Notes under the pieces: generated by a model | Told to the model about the DNA's origin: nothing | The model's database searches: none | Seen by the model: only the letters and a program-made list of their open reading frames with translations | In this document: positions 3,151-50,664 of the stretch, piece after piece | Layout: each line of letters begins with the position of its first letter | How positions within the stretch are numbered: the first letter of the stretch is position 1 | Program-made: the position numbers and the translations under genes | Source: Prorocentrum cordatum | Taxonomy: Eukaryota > Sar > Dinophyceae > Prorocentrales > Prorocentraceae | Assembly: GCA_963575745.1 (NCBI GenBank) | Contig: CAUYUJ010021040.1 | Coordinates: forward strand, 1 to 64,000 | DNA length: 64,000 nt | Direction of reading: 5' to 3'

Positions 3151-4643
3151 GTCCACAGCCTGGAGGCGCAGAGTTTTGCATCGCATTGCGCAGCACGAGG
3201 ATGTTTTTTTCAGGGGCACTGCGTGCTGCAGGCTCGCGGTTCGGGCGTTAGTCGGGGAGGGGTGGCGGGAGGGAAGGATGGGAACTCAAGGGGTGGAGGC
3301 GGCTTCCGCTCTGAACCATGATGGGCGCAGCAAGTAGGAGGGTGGAGTTTGCCGCCCACGCGGATCGGTTCGCTTGACCCGCCTCTCAATGTCGCTGCAT
3401 CGATGCATTTGTTTGAGACAGCGGCTCTGACGAGAGGTGGCCGCATCCGACAACTGCGGATCACCGCGACGCAAGTGCAGAGCTGCGGTGCCTTCAATGT
3501 AGGCGCGATGATAAATGTAAAGAAGGCCCCAGACCCCCCAAAAGAGCCCCAAGAGGGCCCCACGACGCTCCAAAAGAGCACCAAGAAGCCCCAAGAAGGC
3601 CCTAAGAGGACCTCAGGAGAGCCCCACGAAAGAGCCGCATGAGGCCCCAAGATGGGCCCAACCGAATCCCAAGAGGGCCCCAAGATGCCTCCAAGTTTCG
3701 GAACGCACGCGAGTTTAAGATACAAATCAGTGCAACAGCCATTACGAGTCATCGAAATACCCCTCACCTCTCATCGAAGCACCATCGAAATTTGCACCCA
3801 TTTCAATCTTAAGCTTCAATGCGGGAGAGCGCTCCGCCCACTCTGAAGTGACGATCCCCACGCTGACGAACGCTAGGAAGATTGCTGCGGGGAGCGAGCT
3901 ATTCGTCAAGCCAGGTGCACCCACTAGCAAGGAGGCCGACGCTTCTAAGAAGCGCAGGACTTGCTGAGTCCACAGCCTGGAGGCGCAGAGTTTTGCATCG
4001 CATTGCGCAGCACGAGGATGTTTTTTTTCAGGAGCACTGCGTGCTGCAGGCTCGCGGTTCGGGCGTTAGTCGGGGAGGGGTGGCGGGAGGGAAGGATGGG
4101 AACTCAAGGGGTGGAGGCGGCTTCCGCTCTGAACCATGATGGGCGCAGCAAGTAGGAGGGTGGAGTTTGCCGCCCACGCGGATCGGTTCGCTTGACCCGC
4201 CTCTCAATGTCGCTGCATCGATGCATTTTTTTCGAGACAGCGGCTCTGACGAGAGGTGGCCGCATCCGACAACTGCGGATCACCGCGACGCAAGTGCAGA
4301 GCTGCGGTGCCTTCAATGACAAGGCTAGGCGCGATGATAAATGCAAAGAAGGCCCCAGACCCCCCAAAAGAGCCCCTTAAGGGGGCCCCACGACGCTCCA
4401 AAAGAGCACCAAGAAGCCCCAATAAGGCCCTAAGAGGACCTCAGGAGAGCCCCAAGAAAGAGCCCCAGGAGGCCCCAAGAGGGACCCAAAAGAATCCCAC
4501 GAGGGCCCCAAGATGCCTCCAAGTTTCGGAACGCACGCGAGTTTAAGATAAATCAGTGCAACAGCCATTACGAGTCATCGAAATACCCCTCACCTCCCAT
4601 CGAAGCATTATCGCAACTTGCGCAGATGTTCACCTTAAATTTT
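3007..4643. repeat. Tandem duplication, about 817-bp unit, starting inside the last exon
   Basis: Unit 1 is about 3007-3823 and unit 2 about 3824-4643. Both begin GGAGAGCGCTCCGCCCACTC, contain the 3' end of the hypothetical gene, its stop, a G-rich stretch, a CCAAGAGGGCC-type minisatellite and an identical tail. They differ by scattered substitutions and small indels, so the duplication is recent. The coding part in unit 2 (about 3826-3967) is a gene fragment. A third copy is at 13934-14757. Confidence 0.9.
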
Positions 4644-10610: not shown

Positions 10611-10767
10611 GCGGGATACTGGAGTCAAGGCGCGACGAACGTGACCTTGCAGGGGGGCCTGTATCCGAGTCCTACCCTGACCCACTGGGCGGCGAGAGGG
10701 GACATGGCCAAGTAATGAAGAGGATGTGGGGAATTGGTCTTTGGAATGGGGGGGGGGGGTTGGAGGG

Positions 10768-10788
10768 TCCGTAGCCATTGTGGCTCAG
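10768..10788 (+). other. Dinoflagellate spliced-leader relic upstream of transposase-like ORF
   Basis: TCCGTAGCCATTGTGGCTCA then G matches the leader (D)CCGTAGCCATTTTGGCTCAAG with one substitution and one deleted A. It precedes the first ATG of the long ORF by 38 nt, so the ORF appears to be a retro-inserted copy of a mature trans-spliced mRNA. Confidence 0.75.
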
Positions 10789-10826
10789 CCATTCTAGATC
10801 GTGTTGTTCTGTCGACCACTCAGACA

Positions 10827-12926
10827 ATGCAACAGTTCGTATACGCTGTTCTTGGTGCATGTTGCATCTCTGCAGCGTCGTCCATATCAATGACTTCCCT
10901 TCCACCTGCGCCGAAACGGTGCAAAGTGATAGAGCTGGGCAGGAAAAGCCACGTCACTGCGAGCGCACTCTGCAACTTACTCAAGGAGTTGAAAGACCAG
11001 CCATTGCCAGCCTTCTCCAGCCGAACCACCCAGCGGCGACAGCGAGAGCAGATCAGCAACGAGAAAACATCGTTTGGGCCTTTGCTTCAAGAGATGAATG
11101 TTAGCGGTGGAGGTGGACATGCTGATGATGTTGTTTTAGATTTTCAGCACCCTCTTGCATGGTTGGAAGTTGCGTGTAAAAAAAGTGAGTCGTACCGCGA
11201 TATGGTGACAACAGCTTTGGATAAGTCTGGAAACAAGATGTCCATACTACTTTACTCAGACGAAGTAACACCAGGGCAAGCATTAACGTCCCACAATACA
11301 CGCAAAATACAAGCCATGTACTGGTCATTTTTGGAGCTGGAGTTTCCGACGCTCTCAAATGAACTAGCGTGGGCCACCCTCGCGGCCCCGCGGACCGATA
11401 CGGTCCAGCTGCTCCCAGGGAAGATGTCAGATATGTTCAAATATGGGCTTGGGTTGTTCTTTGGTGACACTTATGATTTACGGGCGGGTGTTCACGTTCA
11501 GATTGCAGGGGAACTTCGCCCCAGACTCATTCATGGTTCCCTTGCTCTGGTGATTCAAGATGAAAGGGCGCACAAAGCCGCCAGTGCCGTCATGGGAGCG
11601 ACGGGCCATAAATTATGCCCCCTATGTAAGAACGTAGTGGGGCACAAGAGTTCGCTGTTGCCAGATCCTGGCCGATATTTAATTCCCGCCACGGAAATAG
11701 ACGTAAGTAAGTTCGATCTTCACAGCGACGAGTCTGTGAAGGCTGTGCAAAGACGGCTGGCGCAGATGGCAGCTTCGGGCACTCAGGCTGAATTGGAGGA
11801 GCTGGAAACTCTTTTTGGATTCCATTTCGTGCCAACGGGCATGATGCAATGTCCGAGGCTAGACGTGAACTTAGTGTCGACGTGGGGGTGGGATTGGCTC
11901 CATTGTTACGTGGTGGGTGGGGTTTTCAATAACGAGGTCGAGGAGTTGGAAAGCAGGCTATCGCAACACGGTTTGGGTGGGAAACAGATTGGTAAATATC
12001 TTCAGCGGTTTAAGTGGCCGAGCGGTTACGCCAACGCCAAACAAGTATGCAGGTCAAGGGCTGACAATTCCCCGAAAGGTTTAGCGAGTGAGATGCTGTC
12101 ATTTGCACCCGTCCTGCGGAAGTTCCTAGTGGACGTAGTGATACCGACGAAGTTTCTCGAGGACGAAGTGCAGAGCGCTTTGGCGCTCATCGATGTGCTT
12201 GAACTTTTGAACATTGCAAATTCGGGTGAGGTGACCCCAGCCGAGCTGGGGGTAGCGATATGTACCCACTTCGCTTTGCATCAGGTTGCGTACGGTGATC
12301 TTCTGTGGGTTCCCAAAGCCCACTATTGCCTCCACCTCCCTAGGCAAATGTTGCAGCACAAATTTATTTTGTCGTGCTTCATGCACGAGCGTAAGCATCG
12401 GGTATTGAAAAGAATGGCGGAGCATCGGCACAGCCTCCAGAGCTATAACAAGGGCCTCTTGCAAGAATGTACAGTCCAACATCTGTTTGACATCGACGGC
12501 CCGATCGAAGCCACAAGCTTGATTGAGCCAAGACCCGCAAATAAAAATATGATCAAGGTTTTGGATTCAATGTTCAGCTTGCCTCGCGGGTGCGAGATCT
12601 TGACTGCCAGGTCTCTGATTGCAAACAGTCGCAAAATTGTGATGCAAGATTGTGTAGCGTATGTTTTAGCAGATGGCCGAGTTCGTTTCGGCTGCGTTTG
12701 GTTTCACTTCAGCATTGGAGGAGCGTGCTACAGCTGCATAAGCCAATGGGAGATGTTGGAGGTGACAGACACTGCAGTGAAGTGTCGAACCTCAGATTCC
12801 CCAGATGTGTTTTTGAGTAGCTGCATTTTCGAGCCTTGCACGTTCATGCCTTCAGACGTCGGCAAGATATGCACAATCATTTTACCCCCGAAGCTCAACC
12901 AACGGGTGAGGCGCAGCAGAGCGTGA
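10827..12926 (+). CDS. Transposase-like protein of a dinoflagellate dispersed family, intronless
   Basis: The ORF is open from 10734. I use the ATG at 10827, first after the spliced-leader relic (about 699 aa); ATG 10890 (MTSLPPAPKRCK) is an alternative. Seen features (10827 numbering): LLYSDEVTPG with D145, VIQDERAHK with D245, a CPLCKN pair of cysteines (264, 267), a WDWLHCYVVGG block with D356, and CLHLPRQ...CFMHERKHRVLKR with E521. This order (Asp, Asp, CxxC, late Glu after a His-Leu-Pro helix) recalls Tnp2/CACTA-type DDE transposases, but similarity is distant and the triad D145/D245/E521 is inference. The frame is intact to TGA 12924-12926. No terminal inverted repeats were found around it. 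Confidence 0.5.
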   Translation: MQQFVYAVLGACCISAASSISMTSLPPAPKRCKVIELGRKSHVTASALCNLLKELKDQPLPAFSSRTTQRRQREQISNEKTSFGPLLQEMNVSGGGGHADDVVLDFQHPLAWLEVACKKSESYRDMVTTALDKSGNKMSILLYSDEVTPGQALTSHNTRKIQAMYWSFLELEFPTLSNELAWATLAAPRTDTVQLLPGKMSDMFKYGLGLFFGDTYDLRAGVHVQIAGELRPRLIHGSLALVIQDERAHKAASAVMGATGHKLCPLCKNVVGHKSSLLPDPGRYLIPATEIDVSKFDLHSDESVKAVQRRLAQMAASGTQAELEELETLFGFHFVPTGMMQCPRLDVNLVSTWGWDWLHCYVVGGVFNNEVEELESRLSQHGLGGKQIGKYLQRFKWPSGYANAKQVCRSRADNSPKGLASEMLSFAPVLRKFLVDVVIPTKFLEDEVQSALALIDVLELLNIANSGEVTPAELGVAICTHFALHQVAYGDLLWVPKAHYCLHLPRQMLQHKFILSCFMHERKHRVLKRMAEHRHSLQSYNKGLLQECTVQHLFDIDGPIEATSLIEPRPANKNMIKVLDSMFSLPRGCEILTARSLIANSRKIVMQDCVAYVLADGRVRFGCVWFHFSIGGACYSCISQWEMLEVTDTAVKCRTSDSPDVFLSSCIFEPCTFMPSDVGKICTIILPPKLNQRVRRSRA

Positions 12927-12994: not shown

Positions 12995-13933
12995 TTAATC
13001 CCACCAGCCCTCTGGGCGCAGGAGGTCTATAGGGCTCTTCCCTCTCCAACCTCCTGCCTTTCCCTACTCGAGAGGTTTACCTCCCCCCCCGTCCCTGCGT
13101 TTGGACGGGGGGGGACGGGCCCATATCAGCGTCCAAGATGGCCCAAGATGGCTCCAAGAGGGCCTCCGAGAGCGCAAGATGGCCCCCAAGATGGCCCAAG
13201 ATAGCGGTAGACGGGTCAAGATAGCCTCCGACACGCGTCCAAGAGGTCTCAAGACGGCCCCAAGACGGTTTCAAATGCCCTCCGAGGCCTCCAAGGACCC
13301 CCCAAGAGGCCAAAACCCTTCAACAACCTAAGGAAAACCAGGTTGTTTGCCTTATCGCGTTTTCGCCTCCGAAGGGCTCTTGAGGCCTCAAGATGGCCCC
13401 AAGAGGGCCCAAGACAGCCCCAAGAGGGGCCCAAGAGAGTCCCAAGGCGGCCCCAAGAGCGCCCAAGAGCGCTCTAAGAGCGGGCCAAGAGGGTCCCAAG
13501 ACGGCATTTTTGAGCCTCCGAGGGGGGGGGGGGGCAAGAATTGCTCCCCTCCCCCTCCCCCCCTTCTTTAGCCATAAAGACCAAGGCGCCCCCGAGAGGC
13601 CTCCCAGAACTCCCCCAAAGAGCCCCGAGAGGGCTCCAAGACCCTCCAAAAGAGACCCAAGAGGGCTCCAAGAAGGCCCCAAGAGGACCCCAAGGGCGCC
13701 CCAAGAAGACCCTAAGAGGACCTCAGGAGAGCCCCAAGAAAGAGCCGCATGAGGCCCCAAGAGGGGCCCAACAGAATCCCAAGAGGGCCCCAAGATGCCT
13801 CCAAGTTTCGGAACGCACGCGAGTTTAAGATACAAATCAGTGCAACAGCCATTACGAGTCATCGAAATACCCCTCACCTCTCATCGAAGCACCATCGAAA
13901 TTTGCACCCATTTCAATATTAAACTTCAATGCG
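12995..13933. repeat. CCAAGAGGCCC minisatellite block; inverted to 5.2-5.8 kb, then partial copy of the 3.5-3.8 kb repeat
   Basis: From 12995 to about 13560 the sequence is the reverse complement of 5215-5840, including the G/C tracts and the AAGAGCCCTT and GGACCCCCC landmarks. From about 13600 it switches to direct similarity with 3530-3823. Gly-Pro-Ser-Trp type translations on either strand are repeat artefacts. Confidence 0.8.
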
Positions 13934-14757
13934 GGAGAGCGCTCCGCCCACTCTGAAGTGACGATCCCCACGCTGACGAACACTAGGAAGATTGCTGCGG
14001 GGAGCGAGCTATTCGTCAAGCCAGGTGCACCCACTAGCAAGGAGGCCGACGCTTCTAAGAAGCGCAGGACTTGCTGAGTCCACAGCCTGGAGGCGCAGAG
14101 TTTTGTATCGCATTGCGCAGCACGAGGATGTTTTTTTCAGGAGCACTGCGTGCTGCAGGCTCGCGGTTCGGGCGTTAGTCGGGGAGGGGTGGCGGGAGGG
14201 AAGGATGGGAACTCAAGGGGTGGAGGCGGCTTCCGCTCTGAACCATGATGGGCGCAGCAAGTAGGAGGGTGGAGTTTGCCGCCCACGCGGATCGGTTCGC
14301 TTGACCCGCCTCTCAATGTCGCTGCATCGATGCATTTTTTTGAGACAGCGGCTCTGACGAGAGGTGGCCGCATCCGACAACTGCGGATCACCGCGACGCA
14401 AGTGCAGAGCTGCGGTGCCTTCAATGACAAGGCTAGGCGCGATGATAAATGCAAAGAAGGCCCCAGACCCTCCAAAAGAGCCCCAAGAGGGCCCCACGAC
14501 GCTCCAAAAGAGCACCAAGAAGCCCCAAGAAGGCCCTAAGAGGACCTCAGGAGAGCCCCAAGAAAGAGCCCCAGGAGGCCCCAAGAGGGACCCAAAAGAA
14601 TCCCACGAGGGCCCCAAGATGCCTCCAAGTTTCGGAACGCACGCGAGTTTAAGATACAAATCAGTGCAACAGCCATTACGAGTCATCGAAATACCCCTCA
14701 CCTCTCATCGAAGCACCATCGAAATTTGCACCCATTTCAATATTAAACTTCAATGCG
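13934..14757. repeat. Third copy of the duplicated unit carrying a gene 3' end
   Basis: It begins GGAGAGCGCTCCGCCCACTC and runs through the copied terminal exon piece (TGA 14075-14077), the G-rich stretch and the minisatellite to CAATGCGGG. It matches 3007-3823 and 3824-4643 almost base for base, so it moved or was duplicated over about 10 kb recently. Confidence 0.85.
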
Positions 14758-39249: not shown

Positions 39250-39602
39250 TCGGGCATGTCCTCCCGAAGGCGAAGTTCGGAAGAAAGATGAAGCATAATC
39301 AAAACACATGCAAACAGAACCCAAAAATACCTCTCCATCCCCCCCCATTCCCTGAACCTCTGCCTCCACCTCCTCCTCTCTATTCTCCTTACTCTCCTCC
39401 TCCTCAATGCGGCTCCTCGCCCTGCTCGTCCTACTTCTCCTCCCTCTACCTCGTCGTGGTCAGCGTCCTCATCTTCAGGGTCGGCGGCACGAGCTGTAAG
39501 GCCTTCGCAATGCAACACACATGCAAACATAATCCAGAAAGAATGCTCAGACTTTTGGTTCAGACTATTCTTGGTTTTTCCGCCTGCACAAGGACGGGAC
39601 AA
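39250..39602. mobile_element. MITE family A copy interrupted by about 190 bp
   Basis: The left end GGTCGGGCATGTCCTCCCGA at 39250 and the right end CGCCTGCACAAGGACGGGAC then AAGCCCGACTTGA at 39581-39602 are family A, but the span is 350 bp instead of 160, with CCTCC-rich DNA between. Confidence 0.5.
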
Positions 39603-39934
39603 GCCCGACTTGAGACTGGGCCTCGCCCTCCCTGGGTGCTGCCGAGGACGCAGCTGTCGCCCCTCTGGCGCACCCCCCAGGAGGGCCAGCGGAGCCGAGG
39701 CCCGCGCACCGGCCTTGCAGGGACGCTCCGCCTTCCCTGGGTGCGGCCGGCCGTGCAGCTGTCCGCGCGCCTCTGCTCTCCGCGGGGGTCCAGCGGAAGG
39801 GCGGGGCCCGCTGAGATCACGCCCTCTCCGGGCGCTGCCGGGCGCGCAGTGACGGGAAGTACTCGGCCATTCTCGGCCTCTGCGGGCCCTCCTTGGGCCC
39901 GAGGCCGCCGAGGAAGGCCTCGCCTCCACCCTTC

Positions 39935-40030
39935 GGGCAGAGGAGGAGGAGGAGAAAGGAGGAAGGAGGAGGAGGAGGAGGAAGGAGGAAGGAGGAAGGA
40001 GGAGGAGGAGGAGGAGGAGGAGGAGGAGCA
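39935..40030. repeat. GGA microsatellite at the 3' boundary of the LINE
   Basis: AGGAGG with AAGGAGG interruptions on the plus strand (TCC on the element's sense strand). The LINE 3' UTR ends at this tract. Confidence 0.95.
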
Positions 40031-40105
40031 CGCAGTTGACCATTGGTCAGTCTAAAAAGGGGGTAGCCTGCCCTTCGATTAAGGGAGGCAGAAAAGGCAG
40101 GGAAG

Positions 40106-40963
40106 CTAAACTTCCCCTCTCGTAAATTTGGCAAGATAGGCCGACCCTGTCGACGTGGCCTTCTTGCATTCTTTGAAGAGATTCTGACCCGCTCTTGTAG
40201 CGTGTGAGCCGCAGGTCAGGCATATGTAGGTACCCTTGGCAGACATGACCATATCATGAGACGGGTCAACATACCTGGCACCGATGTACACATTCTGGAG
40301 AGACTTCGCTCCCTCATATCCTGTACGGGGTTTCGCAGGAATGCACGGGGAGGCCAGAAACTCCTGGGACGGAATATTGCCGTGCGAGTTAACAGAAATG
40401 ACCGAACAGCAACTATTACAATAGAGCCTAGAGTCAGGACCTTCTCCTACAGGAATCATATTGTGCGCCGATTCCCTAAGCTGCTTGGCTAATTTGGGGC
40501 GAGGGTTGAAGGCTCGAGGAGGAGGAGGAGGAACGGCTGGTTTCGGCTTGGCTTTGGCTTTCTTACGAGCTCTAGGGGCCTGGGGATTGTCTCCAGAGGC
40601 CTCCGAAAATCTCGAGAGGAAAACTTCACAAGCTCGAATTCTCACAGCACGCGTCAGGGCCTCAGAAATCTGGACCGCCTCCACCTCCCCCGCCTGCAGC
40701 TGTATGTTCTTGGCCGTGTGCTCGGCCAACTCATCAGCTGCCTTATTCCCAACCCAAGCAAAGACAAGCTCCTTTTTCTCTGCAGCCTGCTCGGGAGTCA
40801 TGTGCGACTCGATCTTGATGATAACGGTCGGCTTCTCTCGAAGAAGCCGCTGAATTCGACGCCACTCGTTCCTAAATCCAGCAGGGAAGAAATCCAAGAG
40901 GACCTTATTGACGTTTTTCTGGACATATGACGAGTCCGTGACGAAGACAAGCAGTCGGCCCAC
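40106..40963 (-). CDS. LINE ORF2, C-terminal part: end of RNase H and CxxC segment
   Basis: In frame with the upstream 979-codon block and separated only by TAG 40970-40972. It begins APVGRLLVFVTDSSYVQ, where the Asp of VTD is the third RNase H acidic residue, and continues to WVGNKAADELAEHTA, the usual end of RNase H. Then come a Lys/Pro-rich linker (KKAKAKPKPAVPPPPP) and a C-terminal region with YCNSCCS and YICLTCGSHATRAGQ, a possible zinc-binding tail. Terminates TAG 40106-40108. Because the amber codon cuts the RNase H fold in two, this part is useful only if it is read through. Confidence 0.8.
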   Translation of the reverse strand: MGRLLVFVTDSSYVQKNVNKVLLDFFPAGFRNEWRRIQRLLREKPTVIIKIESHMTPEQAAEKKELVFAWVGNKAADELAEHTAKNIQLQAGEVEAVQISEALTRAVRIRACEVFLSRFSEASGDNPQAPRARKKAKAKPKPAVPPPPPRAFNPRPKLAKQLRESAHNMIPVGEGPDSRLYCNSCCSVISVNSHGNIPSQEFLASPCIPAKPRTGYEGAKSLQNVYIGARYVDPSHDMVMSAKGTYICLTCGSHATRAGQNLFKECKKATSTGSAYLAKFTRGEV

Positions 40964-40969
40964 AGGGGC

Positions 40970-43909
40970 CTACTCCAGGAACCTCAAGAGCGCTATCATC
41001 TCGCCGTGGTTGATAGTCTGGGGCCCCCATGTGGCTCCCGAGGAAGCCCTTGACAAGGCCAGAGACGGAGCTGGGTTTCCTAAATCGAACTCCTCGAAGA
41101 CGACATAAGCCCAAGACACTCTCCTGAATCTGGCCTGATCCGAGTATTTACCCCCCGAGGCATCACCTGCACCGATGATCAGGCATGTGCCGTCGGGAAA
41201 GAAGCCGTGGCTGTGCACAAAAATGTCCGCCTCGTCGGGCGGTAGCGAAACTTGTGTCCACGAAGAAGGAGTGAGGCCTCGAAGCCACACTGAAGGCTGT
41301 GAATCCACCTGGGTGCGAGCACGGTGCACATATGCCTCGACGCTGGTGGTCGAGGGCAAGGCGTCGTTCGCGGAACATTCCCATATTCGGTGAAAGGTAG
41401 ACTCTGGTCGTCCACAATCACAGCGATCACAAACAACAGAAAAATCAGGCGGGTTGATGATGCTTTGAACTCTCTCTCTAGCCCACTGACCACCACAGCA
41501 CACGTTGACTAAAGCTCCTGCCCACTTAAGCTGGCCTTTATCTCTAGCTCGTCGTAGCTGCTGTCGTACATCAGTTAGGTCTACTCCGTTAGCAACATCT
41601 GCGCTCTCATAATGCTTTGCTGCTCGCTTCCAAAGAACCCGACGAACTGAATCGGCTAGGTCTTGACGGATATCATCTAGATCTAGTGGACCTGCTTCAA
41701 GGACCTCTGGAGTAGCCTGATAGACGTTCCCAAGATCAGAAACCCAATGCCAAGGTCCAATGGGGTCCCAGTTGATGTCCAAAAGGGTGCTCACTACAGC
41801 TCTGGTGGGGCCTATGATTCTGCGCCAACGATGCTTAGGAATCTCTCTAGCCTTAGCCACGTGCTGCGACCAGTCCCGTGCTGCAAACGCTCGTGCTTCA
41901 GCTCCTGACGCAAGAATGGCCATCCAGCTGTCGAGCATCTTAAAAACCTGCGAGATTGCTGGATCTTGATCTCCAAGCTCCAGCTGCAAAAGAGTGTCGA
42001 GGCACCGGCCACGGACCGACATCGTGAACGTGCCTCCTATAGCTCTGCGCCAAGCCTGCACTGCAGAAGGGCTCATACCATACACAGCTGCATCATACTG
42101 CACCTTTGCATAACATCCACGATGTATCACGCGACGTGCTGCTGCTCTGCCTGTTCTGCCAGCTCCAATAAGCTTCCGAGCTCGGCCTACTTGCTTCCAT
42201 GCTGCTTTGCGACGTGCTGCTGCTTTAGGTCGTGCTCGCATGTTCGTGCCTCTGTCGGTGCCTAGATCGACTGCTTTCTGTGCCACCGTGATCTTAATAT
42301 TGTGCTGTGCCAACTTGCGCGCAATGTCCTTTGCTAAGCCAGGGTCCCCCGCGATGATCTTGCTCTTGCTTGCGATGCTCAAGTGCGCCTTGTTGCAGAG
42401 CCTGCCCAAGAGAACCCCACCCTTGGTGAGCGCCTGGGAGAGGAACCTGACGGACCCGTACGCATACTGAGTGATATCATCTACCCAAGACGACGTATTG
42501 ACCGACGGTGAGTACTTGTTGTACACAGCTTCAAGGATACTGTAGAGATAAAATCTTCCAAAATCGACCCCTCTACGAGCTCCTGCAATGATGGACTTGT
42601 TGGCCTGGACTGGTGGCGAATAGCACCCTGCTTCCCGAAAAACTCTAACTATAAGATGAGCCAGCCCTTCCATCAGCAACAGCAAAGGCGGAAAATCCAG
42701 GGCCAAGCCCTGCTCGAACAGACGCTCGTACTCTAACGAGTCGTAGAAGCTGTCGATGTCCCACAGTAGGCTAGCCGAGACGGTGTGCTTGGGGCCCATG
42801 CTGACGGCTTCGTCAGTGAAGGCTCGTAAAAGTCCTACACGCAAGCAAGAAGAACCTCTGATCGCATTGTCCCACTTGCCAGCCATCTGCTCGACCCATT
42901 CAGAAGGAAAAATCTGTCTTGCTGAACTCCACAAGCGTATCAAATCTGGGATCAGACCAATTGAACGATCAGAGTCAGCGCCTTTCCTCAACAGAGCAAC
43001 AATGGCAGTCTGAATCTGCCAAGGCCAGCCTCCTCGCCGTTCGCATTCATTCAAAAACCCAGTCAAGTGTGCAATGCCAGCTGGAGGTAAATACTTGAGG
43101 GTACCGCCCAACTGCTCGATGCCTGCCGCCTTGCTGGAGTTGATCTGCTCGACGGTGATGGCGATCTGCTCAGGCTCCAGAGCTGGCCAAGGTTGCGCTG
43201 CTGCCTTAGCGTGAGCCCGTCGAAGGAGTTGAAAGAGCTTTTGCACTGACAAAATTTTGGATGCCCACTTGCGTTGCCACAGCTGACTCTTCTGGACCAA
43301 AATCTCCTTGAGGCTCGTGGAACTTCCTTTCAGGTCGCGGTACTCTGTCTCAACGCGCGTCTTGGGCTTCACGCACCGATGCAACTTCCCACAGCCTTGC
43401 GCAAAAGAATCTCGAATCCAAGATTGAAAAGCGCTGTAACTCTCCTTGGCCGCCTTGCGCTCCAGAGCTGCAGCGATCTTACCCGCTGATGCGCCCATCA
43501 TAATGAGAGCTGCTCTTGGTAGATTGTGAATGTTAAGAAGTGTACTGGCCCAGTCCTGCCGATCTCTACCTACTACCTGGCCGAAACCTGAAAGTGGCAG
43601 GTCTGCAGGAGCCTGTGCCAACCTATGCACCAAGAAGTCTGTTCTCGATGTTTTCCTGACTTGTTTTTTTTCGAAACTGGGCTGAGCAAAACGAGGGGAG
43701 GAGGGGAGGAGTCGCCACCTGCTGCAGTAGAGAACTCCTCGACGTGCTGCTCGGTCCCACTGGCAGAGACTCGAATAAGCTCCTGAATCCAACCAGAAAC
43801 CTGCAGCCACCACTTGATTGACATATCTGAATGCGCTCTGGTTGGCGCGGGCGTCGAAATCGGCAAAGTTTTGAATTCCCTCGCAGCTCCACGACCTTTG
43901 TAATGCCAA
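40970..43909 (-). CDS. LINE ORF2, reverse transcriptase and start of RNase H
   Basis: 979 codons. RT motifs, numbered in this block: LLWDIDSFYDSLEYERL (motif A, D384/D386), SIIAGARRGVDFGRF (motif B, about 439-453), SSWVDDITQYAYGS (motif C, D477/D478), then a thumb-like stretch and LGTDRGTN. A Cys/His cluster follows, C827-C830-C832-H840-C845. RNase H starts with IIGAGDASGGKYSD (D916) and INHGEMIALL (E970), and is cut by TAG 40970. The first ~75 residues are out of frame with the true protein, which arrives from the 44808 frame across the A8 run. Role: copies the element RNA and removes it from the hybrid. Confidence 0.9.
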   Translation of the reverse strand: MALQRSWSCEGIQNFADFDARANQSAFRYVNQVVAAGFWLDSGAYSSLCQWDRAARRGVLYCSRWRLLPSSPRFAQPSFEKKQVRKTSRTDFLVHRLAQAPADLPLSGFGQVVGRDRQDWASTLLNIHNLPRAALIMMGASAGKIAAALERKAAKESYSAFQSWIRDSFAQGCGKLHRCVKPKTRVETEYRDLKGSSTSLKEILVQKSQLWQRKWASKILSVQKLFQLLRRAHAKAAAQPWPALEPEQIAITVEQINSSKAAGIEQLGGTLKYLPPAGIAHLTGFLNECERRGGWPWQIQTAIVALLRKGADSDRSIGLIPDLIRLWSSARQIFPSEWVEQMAGKWDNAIRGSSCLRVGLLRAFTDEAVSMGPKHTVSASLLWDIDSFYDSLEYERLFEQGLALDFPPLLLLMEGLAHLIVRVFREAGCYSPPVQANKSIIAGARRGVDFGRFYLYSILEAVYNKYSPSVNTSSWVDDITQYAYGSVRFLSQALTKGGVLLGRLCNKAHLSIASKSKIIAGDPGLAKDIARKLAQHNIKITVAQKAVDLGTDRGTNMRARPKAAARRKAAWKQVGRARKLIGAGRTGRAAARRVIHRGCYAKVQYDAAVYGMSPSAVQAWRRAIGGTFTMSVRGRCLDTLLQLELGDQDPAISQVFKMLDSWMAILASGAEARAFAARDWSQHVAKAREIPKHRWRRIIGPTRAVVSTLLDINWDPIGPWHWVSDLGNVYQATPEVLEAGPLDLDDIRQDLADSVRRVLWKRAAKHYESADVANGVDLTDVRQQLRRARDKGQLKWAGALVNVCCGGQWARERVQSIINPPDFSVVCDRCDCGRPESTFHRIWECSANDALPSTTSVEAYVHRARTQVDSQPSVWLRGLTPSSWTQVSLPPDEADIFVHSHGFFPDGTCLIIGAGDASGGKYSDQARFRRVSWAYVVFEEFDLGNPAPSLALSRASSGATWGPQTINHGEMIALLRFLE

Positions 43910-44600
43910 GCTCGATCTTGTGGTACCTCAAGTACACGACATAGAAAATTCTCAAAAACTGACGTAAATCTTCCGTAGTCGGATCCTAGCTCGATGGCAG
44001 TCTGGGAATCGTACTTATACGAGAGACTGTCTTGTATCCAATCTGGCGGCAGGGTCCACTCACGGTGCTGGAGAGTGTTGTTGTCAATGGTGGTCCAAAG
44101 CTTATCCAGATCTTCAACCGCCCATTCTAAGTACTTGGCTGGGTGGCAGTCCTGCGCTTCAGGCTTGACCTCGGAAGCCTTATGGTCATAAATGTGCGAC
44201 TGCCACATCTGCTGAAGCGCCTCGGAGTCGAAGTCGAAAAAACCTCGATGCAAAAACTTGCGCGCCTCCTCTGGGCATTTCGTGCATGTGCTGGCCTGCT
44301 GAGGTTGCGCCAAGAACTCCTCGTCTTCAGGCTCGGGTTCAGGAGGTTCTTGATCAAGATCCTCCGGGTGGTCCAGAACTCGCTGCTGCCGTCGCTGCTC
44401 CAGCTCCAGCTTCTTCCTCGACCGTTTGCTGTTGGGGTCAGCCTTTAGCTTGGTGGGCAGCGGCGGCAAGAACATCTTCGGTAAGTCCAAGATTCGACGC
44501 GCAGACTGTTGTGCCGAAACATTCAACTCCAAGATCATGCCGTAGTGGTCACCACCCTCAGCATCCAACTGAATCGCATCATGAAAAAGTGTAGAAAAAA
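43672..44600 (-). CDS. LINE ORF2, end of endonuclease and linker before RT
   Basis: In a third frame, between the two homopolymer shifts: FHDAIQLDAEGGDHYGMILE contains the GDH that closes an AP-endonuclease active site. It is followed by KLKADPNSKRSRKKLELEQR, an acidic Pro/Glu stretch, CTKCPEEARKF and WLQVSGWIQELIRVSASGTE. At T8 on the plus strand (43664-43671) the frame passes to the RT block. The linker is long (about 270 aa) and not recognisable as a domain. Confidence 0.75.
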
Positions 44601-45250
44601 TCCTGAGAGGCCACAGCATAGTCGATAATTCGCTGCCCCTTGCCCCTCGTGGACGTGTGGGTGATGCCAGGAGGGTGGTAAAAATGTCCATTCCACTTAC
44701 GAATCCAAGTAGCCATCTCCAGGGGAGTAGCGTTGAAATCCCCCATGATGATCCAAGGCCCAGCATGATTGTCCAACAGCGCCGATATGGTGAGAAGCTT
44801 TGCGACATTGATGGGTGCCTCCAGCCCCACTGAGACAGTCAAATACGCGCCGATCACCAGCAGCGGGGCTCTGGCGATCTTCCACTCGACCGCCACCACA
44901 TCTTTGAAGGACAAGGGCCCCGATAGCTTCTGTTTGCTGCTGACGTCAACTAAGCCGATCGCGTTGTCAGGGTCGTCCGACAAGTGGCGATAAGAAGACC
45001 AACAGAGATGCTGACGGATACCCAGAACAATGCCACCTGCCTTCTACACGTAGGTCGTGGGGTAAGCTGGAGAAACAATACCTTGCCATTTGTGCTGCTT
45101 CAGCGTGCTCAAAATATCCTGAGTGTCGCATGCTAGCACGTGCGTCTCGGGCATGATGATGGTATCAACATCACTCTCTGCGAAAAGCTTGGTGGCCTTG
45201 TGCCCCCACATGGAAAGATTATGCAGTGGCAATCGCCGAACCTCTGGTGC
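44579..45250 (-). CDS. LINE ORF2, AP-like endonuclease
   Basis: Starts about NLSMWGHKATKLFAESDVDT, with IIMPETH (metal-binding Glu), then TAG 45044-45046, then KAGGIVLGIRQHLCWSS in the same frame. Downstream are WIIMGDFNATPLEM (D and N of the active site, near 44740) and RIIDYAVAS (D near 44624). The final GDH lies in the next frame after the A6 run (44595-44600). The motif order E, GDFN, DY, GDH is that of exonuclease-endonuclease-phosphatase enzymes used by LINEs to nick target DNA. Stop and frameshift make this copy inactive as written. Confidence 0.85.
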
Positions 45251-45293
45251 CGCATTTTGAGATTGTCTCGGCTTCGGGCACAGACGGATCGTG

Positions 45294-46556
45294 CTACCCG
45301 CATTTTTGTGGAGCCACAGCAGCGTCAGCGAAGGTCTCCGACGAGGGCGGGTTGCCCCTGGCGGCTGCCAGAAGCCGCTGCACTGACTCCTGGGACGCCT
45401 TCGCCTTCGGGGGAGACTCATCTGCCGCTGCCTCCTGGGGCTGCGAGGGGGGCGCTGCTGCAGCAGCGGCGGCAGGGGCTGCTGCCGAGGCCGCGGCGCG
45501 CTGCCCTGCAGAAGGCGCTGCCTGGCCGTCGCCTGCGGCAGGGGCAGCAGGCTGGTGTCCACCTGCAGGCTGCTCCTCACCACGATCTTTACCTTCAGCA
45601 GCTGCCTCGCCTTGAGCTCCCACGCGTCGACGCTTGGAGGCCATGCGAGCCTTGAACTCCTTGAACTGCTGTCTGCGAGCGCCCAGCTGAGCAGCCGCTG
45701 GGCCAATCGCAGCACTGATCGCCTGCTTGATCTCCTGTGCCAAAGAGATCTTGTGCTTCTGCCATGCCTCGATGTCCTCCTTGGCCAGGTCAAGATCGGC
45801 GAAGTCGAAAGCCTCGCCGTCCTCGAACTCGAACAATTGCCCGAGCTCGTCGCCCTCGTCGAGAAAGCTGGACAAGTTGAGCTTGGGCTTGGGGACGGCG
45901 GCAGCGGCAGCAGGTGCAGCACCTTCTCGACACTTGAGGCGCTGGAGGTCCTGCTCCAATTGCTGCTCATGGGCCAGCCTGGCATCCGCGGCATCTTGCG
46001 CAGCCTGCTGCACAGCATCCTGAGCCCGTGCCAGCCAGTCGGTGCACTCCTGCTCGTGAGCGGTCGCCTTCGCAAGGGACTCATCAGCCTTGCGCGCAGC
46101 CACTGCCAGCCGCTGTGCCTCTCGCTCGCGCTCAAGGCTGGGCTTGACAGGGGCGGCGGCAGCTGGCGGCGGAGCGACCTCGAACTCCTTCTTGAGCGCT
46201 GCCAGGCGCTCGCCATGCTGTGGGGCGCGGCGCAGCAGGGCCTCGAACAGCTGGTCGGTCGAAGGAGCGAAAGGGTTGGCACTGCCGTCGCCGAGGGTGG
46301 CCGCCGCTGGTGGAGCCCACTGCCCAAGGGGCGGCCGTACGAAGGGGCTTGGTGGGTGTCCTGGCTGCACTGGACCAGGTAGCGCGGGCGGTCCTCGGCT
46401 CCACGACCCTGCATCACGTGGTGGAGGCTGGCCACCGACAGGACGTAGAAGGCCTCCGCACTGCCAGCATGCCGTGTGCCGCTTCCAATTCCACTTGTAG
46501 CGACAGCCGTCATGAGGACAAAACACAAAGCCACGTGCCGCCGCAGGCTTCCCCAT
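45294..46556 (-). CDS. LINE ORF1: N-terminal zinc finger, coiled-coil and Ala-rich protein
   Basis: 420 aa from ATG 46554-46556, the first ATG after the spliced leader. Residues 13-33, CPHDGCRYKWNWKRHTACWQC, form a C4 zinc-ribbon-like motif. A Pro-rich stretch follows, then a long helix (residues about 130-210, KPSLEREREAQRLAVAARKA ... RLAHEQQLEQDLQRLK), an acidic patch (SFLDEGDELGQLFEFEDGEA), and a basic then Ala/Pro-rich tail. It ends TAG 45294-45296, and ORF2 reads in another frame across the junction. By position it should be the RNA-binding ORF1 protein, but no RRM or CCHC knuckle is seen. Intact. Confidence 0.75.
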   Translation of the reverse strand: MGKPAAARGFVFCPHDGCRYKWNWKRHTACWQCGGLLRPVGGQPPPRDAGSWSRGPPALPGPVQPGHPPSPFVRPPLGQWAPPAAATLGDGSANPFAPSTDQLFEALLRRAPQHGERLAALKKEFEVAPPPAAAAPVKPSLEREREAQRLAVAARKADESLAKATAHEQECTDWLARAQDAVQQAAQDAADARLAHEQQLEQDLQRLKCREGAAPAAAAAVPKPKLNLSSFLDEGDELGQLFEFEDGEAFDFADLDLAKEDIEAWQKHKISLAQEIKQAISAAIGPAAAQLGARRQQFKEFKARMASKRRRVGAQGEAAAEGKDRGEEQPAGGHQPAAPAAGDGQAAPSAGQRAAASAAAPAAAAAAAPPSQPQEAAADESPPKAKASQESVQRLLAAARGNPPSSETFADAAVAPQKCG

Positions 46557-46695
46557 GGCGTCAGGCGGGACGGGATGGAGGCTAGCGAACCCCTCAGCCG
46601 CTTCGACCGAGGGACCTCCGTAAACTCAGTGATCTGCCGCGGACTAGCGGTATCCGTTTTAGCCAATGCGGGCACAGCCCGCCAAAGCATCAGTC

Positions 46696-46717
46696 TTGAG
46701 CCAAAATGGCTACGGAG
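46696..46717 (-). other. Perfect dinoflagellate spliced-leader sequence at the LINE 5' end
   Basis: On the minus strand, T followed by CCGTAGCCATTTTGGCTCAA and G: 22 of 22 bases of the conserved leader (D = T). It is directly preceded by TCC repeats and followed by ACTGATGCTTTGG, with no GT donor, so it is not a spliced-leader RNA gene. It is the mark of a trans-spliced transcript copied into DNA. Confidence 0.95.
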
Positions 46718-47075
46718 GAGGAGGAGGAGGAAGGAGGAAGGAGGAAGGAGGAAGGAGGAAGGAGGAAGGAGGGAGGAGGAGGAGGATGAGGAGGAGGAGG
46801 AGGAGGAGGAGGAGGAGGACGGAAGAGGAGGAGGAGGAGGAGGAGGAGGAGGAGGAGGAGAGGAGAGGGAGGGAGGAGGAGAAGGAGGAGGGAGGGGAGG
46901 AGGAGGAGGAGGAGGAGGAGGAGGAGGAGGAGGAGGGAGGAGGAGGAGGAGGAGGAGGAGGAGGAGGAGGAGGAGGAGGAGGAGGAGGAGGAGGAGGAGG
47001 AGGAGCGAGGAGGAGGAGGAGGAGGAGGAGGAGGAGGGAGAAGGGAGGAGGGAGGAGGGAGGAGGCGGGGGCAGA
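46718..47075. repeat. GGA microsatellite, about 360 bp, at the LINE 5' boundary
   Basis: GGA with AAGGAGG and GGGAGGA variants, extending from the spliced leader. Long Gly/Arg/Glu- and Ser/Leu/Pro-rich ORFs are artefacts. Confidence 0.95.
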
Positions 47076-47424
47076 ATCCGCCAGAGTACGCCGAGCCCTG
47101 TTCCCATAACGAGGGCGGCCGCCTCTCTCGCTGCCTTGCTGCGCCGCCGCTCCTGGGTCTCCCGCGGGCCCGGAGGGGGCCTCGGCCTGCCTGGTCTCCT
47201 GGCAGCGGCGCGCGGCGGTGGCGACGCGGTGCTGCGCCCCCTCGGAGGTCCAGCGGCGGCCTCGTTGGCGCAGGCCCGTGGGACCCCACCTCCACCTTGT
47301 GAACGTTTTCTGGCTCGGCGTTCCGGCAGTGGGCGGAAGGGCAGGACGGGGGGGGAGGGGAGCTAGACGGAACGACAGAGAGGGCAGCCCACTCAGAGAC
47401 CCACCCATCTCGGTTCCCCACTCA

Positions 47425-47745
47425 GCGCTTGCACTGGAGGGGTCCCAGCGGAGATTCCTCAGTCAGTGCTTGCACTGAAGGGGTCTTAGCGGAAATTGAA
47501 AGATTGGGCGATAATTTCCCGCCGATGTTGGTGGCCAGCTGGGTTCCCGGGTTCCCCGTTCTGGGTTTCCGGGTTCCTGGTTCCGGGTTCCCAGGTTCCT
47601 GATTGGGTTTTTTCTCTGGCGTAATTGGACGACTTGGCAACATAAGTTCCTGCCGATTTTGGTAGCCGGCTGCCGGGTGGGTTTCCGGGTTCCCGGGTTC
47701 CTGGTTATTGGCTTACCGGGTTCCCAGGTTCCTAGTCGATCTCCT
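47425..47745. repeat. Two 40-bp repeats and a GGGTTCC(C/T) minisatellite
   Basis: GCGCTTGCACTGGAGGGGTC recurs 42 bp on as GTGCTTGCACTGAAGGGGTC. Then 47535-47735 is built of GGGTTCCCGGGTTCCTGG-like words, interrupted by a TTTTTTCTCTGGCGTAATTGG segment that recurs in altered form at 47790. Confidence 0.8.
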
Positions 47746-50239: not shown

Positions 50240-50345
50240 CCTTCTCATGATCCTCTTCTTCCTGAATCGTGGGCCCCTCGGACCCCGATAACCACCCAAA
50301 CCCCCCAAAGCTATCCTGCTGCTCCTCCGTTTCCATTGTGACTCA
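50240..50345 (-). CDS. Possible short acidic exon
   Basis: Minus strand: METEEQQDSFGGFGWLSGSE then GPTIQEEEDHEKEKGAH. Non-repetitive and acidic, about 40 codons; borders uncertain. Confidence 0.25.
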
Positions 50346-50664
50346 AGCCACTGTGGCTCAAATCCGAAGCAGAATGCTCAGCACAACAAGAGCACCGATT
50401 GGCGGATAATGTAGCGATGACCTGTCAAAGTAATCTTCGATAGTCTAGCGCGACTTCATCCTGCATGCCATTTGCAAGCCACTACTCCAGACGTACCATG
50501 GCGCCGCCTGCTGGGCAGAAGTCGGCGAGATCTCCCAGGACCGATAAATCTATATAACTTGTATATACAAAAATTCCAGGATGGGGATACAGCAGGTGAG
50601 GGGCAGCGCAGAACTGGGCCTCCTCTGGTCTGACAGTGCTGATGACTGAAATCTGGCCTCCCAT

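What the first reader, a model, noticed from the sequence alone, without database searches (positions are those of the whole stretch)
46696..46717. A full LINE begins exactly with a perfect 22-nt dinoflagellate spliced leader
The sequence shows 22/22 identity to the conserved leader at the 5' end of a 6.7-kb LINE, 140 nt before ORF1. Known biology: dinoflagellate mRNAs receive this leader by trans-splicing, and leader relics mark mRNAs copied back into the genome. Inference: the LINE transcript is itself trans-spliced and then reverse-transcribed to its very 5' end, so the host leader becomes part of the element. A LINE that borrows its 5' end, and perhaps its cap and translation signals, from host trans-splicing would be an unusual life cycle.
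Basis: partly seen in the sequence, partly recalled or inferred. Interest (0 to 1): 0.92.

Follow-up and report, generated by a model that had tools for sequence, protein, structure and literature searches.

The report
LINE copy carrying host spliced leader
A dinoflagellate jumping gene of the LINE type starts with a perfect copy of the short leader that the host splices onto its messenger RNAs, so this copy was probably made from a trans-spliced transcript; whether the whole LINE family lives this way could not be tested.

Summary
A 22/22 dinoflagellate spliced leader (DinoSL) lies on the minus strand at 46716-46695, one base off the given coordinates. It is flush with the 5' end of a 6,688-bp LINE (46716-40029) with ORF1, an AP-type endonuclease and a reverse transcriptase. 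The first three leader bases, TCC, also fit the (TCC)n array upstream, so 19 bases are unambiguous. The LINE sits inside a (CTC)n array. A 36-39-bp repeat ending at the leader recurs 25 nt past the LINE's 3' end and fits a target-site duplication, though such arrays often share long matches. AC follows the leader, not the GT/GC of SL-RNA genes. There is no poly(A) tail.

Best reading: this copy was reverse-transcribed from a trans-spliced LINE RNA to its last base. That the family depends on the leader is unproven. No other copy could be seen: the own-genome search failed 19 times. No second leader relic follows the first, which repeated cycles would often leave. Two other leader relics in the window suggest that leader-tagged copies are ordinary here. 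Leader-bearing retrotransposons were already suggested in Schistosoma (PMC5832876, passages).

The parts
46695..46716 (-). Complete DinoSL, 22/22; the first three bases (46716-46714, TCC) are ambiguous with the (TCC)n array
46557..46694 (-). 138-nt 5' untranslated stretch between leader and ORF1; starts AC (no GT/GC donor), no second leader relic directly after the leader
45294..46556 (-). ORF1, 420 aa, open; 50% identical over 57% of its length to a protein of Prorocentrum cordatum whose downstream part is endonuclease-like
44582..45165 (-). AP-type endonuclease region (GDFN-type stretch aligned to P0001 and P0002 at 44896-44606), interrupted by an in-frame TAG at 45046-45044; after it the open frame changes
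43576..44838 (-). open frame (421 codons) between endonuclease and reverse transcriptase in another frame; that it continues ORF2 is inferred
40973..43927 (-). Reverse transcriptase region with a VDD motif; the 979-aa ORF is 23% identical over 82% of its length to P0001, which has a precomputed RVT_1 domain
40109..40969 (-). C-terminal part of ORF2 after an in-frame TAG (40972-40970); RNase H-like by eye only
40029..40108 (-). 3' untranslated end without poly(A), ending ...GGTCAACTGCGTG and abutting (CTC)n
46714..46752 (-). 5' copy of the candidate target-site duplication (39 bp; 36 bp if TCC is given to the leader)
39965..40003 (-). 3' copy of the candidate target-site duplication
40004..40028 (-). 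25 nt of pure (CTC)n between element end and 3' duplication: tail of the RNA, or slippage at priming (inferred)
46714..47064 (-). pyrimidine-rich (TCC/TTCC)n array directly upstream of the leader

Best explanation
This is one insertion of an AP-endonuclease LINE of a dinoflagellate (most likely Prorocentrum cordatum or a near relative). Its RNA template had been trans-spliced: the host leader was joined to an acceptor directly before ACTGATGC in the LINE's 5' region. Target-primed reverse transcription began at the element's own 3' end, on a (GAG)n strand of a (CTC)n microsatellite and not on a poly(A) tail, and ran to the last base of the leader, which was joined to the target perhaps through TCC microhomology. 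Shown: leader, its flush position, the arrays on both sides, missing poly(A), no GT/GC donor after the leader. Inferred: trans-splicing of the RNA, the target-site duplication, priming on the microsatellite. Whether this was a single accident or the family's habit is left to the first two rivals, which both build on this reading.
For: Exact leader, none expected by chance. It lies at the outermost base of a 6,688-bp LINE-like unit with an open ORF1. The array sequence ending at the leader (36-39 bp, with TTCCTCC interruptions) recurs 25 nt beyond the LINE's 3' end; suffixes of 24 bp and more occur only at these two places in the window. AC follows the leader, whereas the SL genes of Fugacium kawagutii continue with GU or GC (PMC6616646, passages). 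DinoSL at the 5' end of genomic copies is the accepted mark of retroposed mRNA (PMC6050394, part 1 of 3 read). Lack of poly(A) agrees with SymbioLINE elements, described as lacking poly-A tails (PMC5890265, passages).
Against: Only one copy was seen. The 39-bp repeat is less striking than it looks: other CTC regions of the window share matches of up to 64 bp with fewer interruptions. Reverse transcriptase and endonuclease were recognised through two distant relatives, not by Pfam directly. A missing donor does not by itself exclude a decayed SL gene: the same paper describes SL-like loci without donors (PMC6616646). No transcript data were available.
Confidence: 0.82

Rival explanations
1. Family-wide leader dependence: LINE copies land in pyrimidine arrays, are transcribed by read-through, and use the array as polypyrimidine tract plus an AG in or at the end of the leader as acceptor, so that host trans-splicing rebuilds their 5' end in every cycle.
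For: The leader sits behind a roughly 350-nt pyrimidine array on the sense strand, an apt acceptor context. A leader-terminal AG acceptor would rebuild the element unchanged. Relics in transcripts are truncated after nt 7 of the leader, which fits use of the internal AG (PMC3229502, passages).
Against: No tandem relic follows the leader (4 of 15), although the internal AG would be met first. One copy only, and its ORF2 carries two in-frame stops and, by inference from the open frames, two frame changes.
Confidence: 0.25
2. One-off processed copy (also builds on the best explanation): the LINE's true 5' end, perhaps with its promoter, lies upstream of ACTGATGC. A transcript was accidentally trans-spliced, lost that end, and the copy is a dead-on-arrival LINE with a host leader.
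For: A single leader without relics. Leader-tagged retrogenes are common in dinoflagellates: 22.3% and 23.2% of genes in two Symbiodinium genomes (PMC6050394). Two other relics in the same window. SymbioLINE elements have conserved 5' UTRs (PMC5890265, passages). This copy looks decayed.
Against: ORF1 with its first in-frame ATG is complete; nothing shows that upstream LINE sequence exists.
Confidence: 0.55
3. The leader was there before: the LINE inserted next to an SL-RNA gene, a decayed SL-like locus or an older retrocopy, as SL-gene-specific LINEs do.
For: LINEs that target spliced-leader genes are known in trypanosomes and nematodes (recalled). SL-like loci without donors exist in Fugacium (PMC6616646, passages).
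Against: No GU/GC donor after the leader, no leader or SL gene at the 3' flank, which is (CTC)n. The only exact leader of the window is this one. The candidate duplication lies outside the leader.
Confidence: 0.05
4. Assembly chimera at the low-complexity array that joined a leader-tagged transcript end to a LINE.
For: Long (CTC)n arrays are hard to assemble (general knowledge); the authors of PMC5832876 raise chimeric assembly for their cases (passages).
Against: The leader is on the LINE side of the array and directly contiguous with the ORF1 5' region; the array on the other side shares its interruption pattern.
Confidence: 0.06

Closest known systems
DinoSL-tagged retrogenes of dinoflagellates (PMC6050394, part 1 of 3 read; PMC12014239 and PMC7245778, passages)
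   Same: A complete or relic leader marks the 5' end of DNA copied back from a trans-spliced RNA
   Different: Here the copied RNA is the transcript of a LINE that itself encodes a reverse transcriptase, and no poly(A) is left at the 3' end
SL exon sequences merged to transposable elements in Schistosoma mansoni (PMC5832876, passages)
   Same: Genome-encoded leader joined to (retro)transposons; the authors suggest trans-spliced, retro-transcribed elements
   Different: Six cases, no boundaries described in the passages seen, and a stated doubt about assembly; here the leader is at the exact end of one LINE copy with a candidate target-site duplication
DinoSL on a dinoflagellate RNA virus and near its endogenous copies (PMC10235124, passages)
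   Same: A non-host RNA of dinoflagellates that bears the host leader; 6 of 26 endogenous RdRp ORFs have a leader within 500 bp
   Different: A non-retroviral RNA virus, without a reverse transcriptase of its own
SymbioLINE-Dnmt (PMC5890265, passages)
   Same: Dinoflagellate LINE with endonuclease and reverse transcriptase, target-site duplications, no poly(A)
   Different: A DNA methyltransferase is encoded upstream of the RT; conserved 5' UTR; the terms spliced leader and splice leader do not occur in its main text
Trypanosomatid L1Tc/ingi LINEs (PMC8190864, start of abstract in a listing only)
   Same: LINEs in a host with leader trans-splicing
   Different: They share a 5' promoter (Pr77) that generates unspliced transcripts

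Membership tests
DinoSL-tagged retrocopy | Complete or relic DinoSL at the 5' boundary of the copied sequence | tested here: met
   22/22 at the outermost base
DinoSL-tagged retrocopy | Poly(A) remnant at the 3' end (expected of a copied mRNA; not part of the DinoSL criterion in the papers seen) | tested here: not met
   Element ends ...GCGTG followed by (CTC)n
DinoSL-tagged retrocopy | Parental copy without the leader elsewhere in the genome | not testable with these tools
   The genome search did not answer in 19 of 19 tries (calls listed in Tried and rejected)
AP-endonuclease LINE (non-LTR retrotransposon) | Reverse transcriptase | tested here: met
   E 2.5e-25 to P0001, which has PF00078 precomputed; no direct Pfam match
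AP-endonuclease LINE (non-LTR retrotransposon) | AP-type endonuclease upstream of the RT | tested here: met
   tblastn of P0001 (1.3e-4) and P0002 (2.4e-4) at 44896-44606; the two relatives match Exo_endo_phos only below the curated cut-off
AP-endonuclease LINE (non-LTR retrotransposon) | No long terminal repeats | tested here: met
   BLASTN (E up to 1e-3, low complexity masked) of 40031-46717 against the window finds only itself
AP-endonuclease LINE (non-LTR retrotransposon) | Target-site duplication | tested here: inconclusive
   36-39 bp repeat at both ends but within simple-sequence arrays that often share long matches
SL-gene-specific LINEs (SLACS, CRE1, CZAR, NeSL; names recalled) | Insertion inside an SL-RNA gene, so that SL-gene sequence flanks both ends | tested here: not met
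   No GT/GC donor after the leader; 3' flank is (CTC)n
Microsatellite-targeted LINEs | Same simple repeat on both sides of this insertion | tested here: met
   (CTC)n-type regions at 47064-46714 and 40028-39940
Microsatellite-targeted LINEs | Many independent copies in the same repeat | not testable with these tools
   No second copy available; only one in the window

The most novel reading that the evidence does not exclude
A dinoflagellate LINE family has given up its own 5' promoter and cap. It inserts into sense-strand (CTC)n arrays that serve as ready-made polypyrimidine tracts, is transcribed by read-through, and has its 5' end rebuilt in each cycle by host leader trans-splicing at an AG in or just after the genomic leader.
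Probability: 0.2. Interest if true: 0.85.

Novelty: new member of a known kind. Interest (0 to 1): 0.52.

Why it matters
Dinoflagellate genomes hold many leader-tagged retrogenes, and the reverse transcriptase behind them is only presumed to come from retrotransposons (PMC12014239, passages). A LINE whose own copy carries a complete leader shows, if read correctly, that a reverse transcriptase of this lineage, most simply the LINE's own, can copy a trans-spliced RNA to its last base: the activity needed to make the retrogenes. If the leader proved to be a family trait, it would be a retrotransposon that outsources its 5' end to the host splicing machinery. Either way the question is directly testable by aligning copies in published genomes.

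Tried and rejected
Own-genome copies: the genome search (own, leader pattern) was asked 19 times, with waits between the later ones, and never answered. Relatives elsewhere: RT in viral contigs, no pattern match; ORF1 in genome contigs, 112 stretches matched a pattern and none was confirmed; ORF1 in viral contigs, 3 matched and none was confirmed; megablast of the LINE to plasmids, none. These collections say that records of the window's own genome may be left out. Three protein searches gave only P0001 and P0002, each search scoring only about 8,000 candidates that share most words.

Chance: rejected. SL-RNA gene or SL-gene-targeted LINE: disfavoured (no donor after the leader, (CTC)n at the 3' side). 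A leader/5'-UTR hairpin: in folding, leader nt 1-10 pair with UTR sequence, matched by 2 of 300 shuffles, but by duplex energy 73 of 500 shuffles do as well, so I make nothing of it. Rfam: one match in 39500-47700 at E 0.9, 24.6 bits against a gathering score of 54.5, not credible. RNA folds: z -1.33 for the 3' end, -1.58 for the 5' stretch. Structure of the RT: AlphaFold on a two-sequence alignment gave mean pLDDT 31.4, useless, so no fold search was made. PDB by sequence: five ribosomal-protein matches at E 1.6 or worse, no meaning. Strength of the duplication: compared with 420 ordered pairs of 21 CTC regions and found weaker than its length suggests. A viral-contig match to an 18-base leader core in L002 lies in unrelated sequence and looks like chance.

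Full report
What is there. The leader TCCGTAGCCATTTTGGCTCAAG lies on the minus strand at 46716-46695, exact; the given coordinates are one off. Sixty shuffles of the window never exceed 16 of 22 matches. On the sense strand the order is: a pyrimidine array of about 350 nt, the leader, 138 nt, ORF1 (420 aa), endonuclease region, reverse transcriptase region, a C-terminal part, a short 3' UTR ending ...GGTCAACTGCGTG at 40029, and again (CTC)n. The array ends in ...CCTCC, so the leader's TCC is shared with it: 19 bases are leader beyond doubt and three are ambiguous.

Is it a LINE? ORF1 is 50% identical over 57% of its length to a protein of Prorocentrum cordatum (P0002) that continues into an endonuclease-like part. 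The RT ORF is 23% identical over 82% to a metagenome protein with a precomputed RVT_1 domain (P0001), and both relatives align to the endonuclease stretch within 44896-44606. Pfam does not recognise the window's own ORFs as LINE proteins, so the assignment rests on two distant relatives plus order of domains, the VDD and GDFN-type motifs (motifs recalled), and absence of long terminal repeats. Window G+C is 59.4%; P. cordatum is reported at 59.7% (PMC10666404, passages). The host is therefore probably P. cordatum or close; this is inference.

State of the copy. ORF1 is open. ORF2 has in-frame stops at 45046-45044 and 40972-40970 and, judged from the stop-to-stop frames, two changes of frame, so this copy is probably dead, unless these are sequencing errors.

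Boundary. The array suffix ending at the leader recurs at 40003-39965, 25 nt past the LINE end: 36 bp without and 39 bp with the ambiguous TCC. Suffixes of 24 bp and more occur only at these two places in the window. That is what a target-site duplication in a microsatellite would look like. Against it: CTC regions of this window share up to 64 bp by common periodicity, with fewer interruptions (two against three; 21 regions, 420 ordered pairs). I call it consistent and modest in weight.

Mechanism. Three facts need one account: a complete leader at the outermost base, no poly(A), and the same simple repeat on both sides. A LINE RNA trans-spliced by the host and used in target-primed reverse transcription, primed in the microsatellite and run to the template's end, accounts for all three. 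An SL-RNA gene is unlikely: those of Fugacium kawagutii continue with GU or GC after AAG, here it is AC. The same paper does describe SL-like loci without donors (PMC6616646, passages), so the argument also leans on the flush position and the (CTC)n at the 3' side.

One copy or a life cycle? Relics in transcripts are truncated after nt 7 of the leader, at its internal AG (PMC3229502, passages; PMC6616646, offers tandem-SL genes as another source). A LINE that had gone through trans-splicing before should therefore often show leader + 15-nt relic. Here the next 15 nt match the relic unit at 4 of 15 positions. Either the parent had no leader, or splicing used an AG at the junction to ACTGATGC, which would leave no trace. 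Only other copies can tell, and none could be obtained: the own-genome search did not answer in 19 of 19 tries, and three scans for relatives confirmed none.

How ordinary is a leader here? Two other relics lie in the window: 10768-10789 (+), 19 of 22, within the first 60 nt of a mechanically listed 730-aa ORF (10734-12926); and 50326-50362 (+), 30 of 37 to leader + relic, a tandem (shuffle maxima 16 of 22 and 24 of 37). Three leader traces in 64 kb agree with the literature, where 22.3% and 23.2% of genes in two Symbiodinium genomes are leader-tagged retrogenes (PMC6050394, part 1 of 3 read). This lowers the surprise of a tagged LINE copy.

What is in print. In the papers listed by the ten searches, of which I read passages or parts only, I saw no dinoflagellate LINE described as starting with DinoSL; most subscription papers are not in that library. 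[quoted passage not shown] A dinoflagellate RNA virus is cited as carrying the leader, and 6 of 26 endogenous RdRp ORFs have one within 500 bp (PMC10235124, passages). So the idea is not new; a base-exact case at a LINE boundary is a new member.

Verdict.

Noticed in passing
L001 (IMGVR_UViG_3300045993_001077) 2913-2893 and 2766-2746, minus strand: An AT-rich virus-like contig (7-28% G+C in 250-base windows outside the island) holds two exact DinoSL copies. The second begins a roughly 1-kb island of 44-50% G+C with a 254-aa ORF of no clear family; a similar AT-rich stretch of about 120 nt lies directly before the second leader and about 40 nt before the first. Either a dinoflagellate mRNA retrocopy inside a giant-virus-like genome, or viral use of the host leader.
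   Followed up: partly
50326-50362, plus strand: Decayed tandem leader relic (22 + 15 nt, 30 of 37 matches; shuffle maximum 24), suggesting two rounds of retroposition; no ORF of 150 aa or more is listed on that strand between it and 54051.
   Followed up: partly
10768-10789, plus strand, inside ORF 10734-12926: Leader relic (19 of 22) near the 5' end of a long uninterrupted ORF with no Pfam match at E up to 0.001: a likely retrogene or another mobile element.
   Followed up: partly
whole window: 21 merged (CTC)n-type regions, 11 on the plus and 10 on the minus strand, the longest about 350 nt.
   Followed up: partly
3210-3767, 13320-13877, 14213-14701 (minus strand): Three ORFs share the same start (MRGISMTRNGCCTDLYLKLACVPKLGGILGPSWDS), a repeated family with GPSWG-type repeats.
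   Followed up: no
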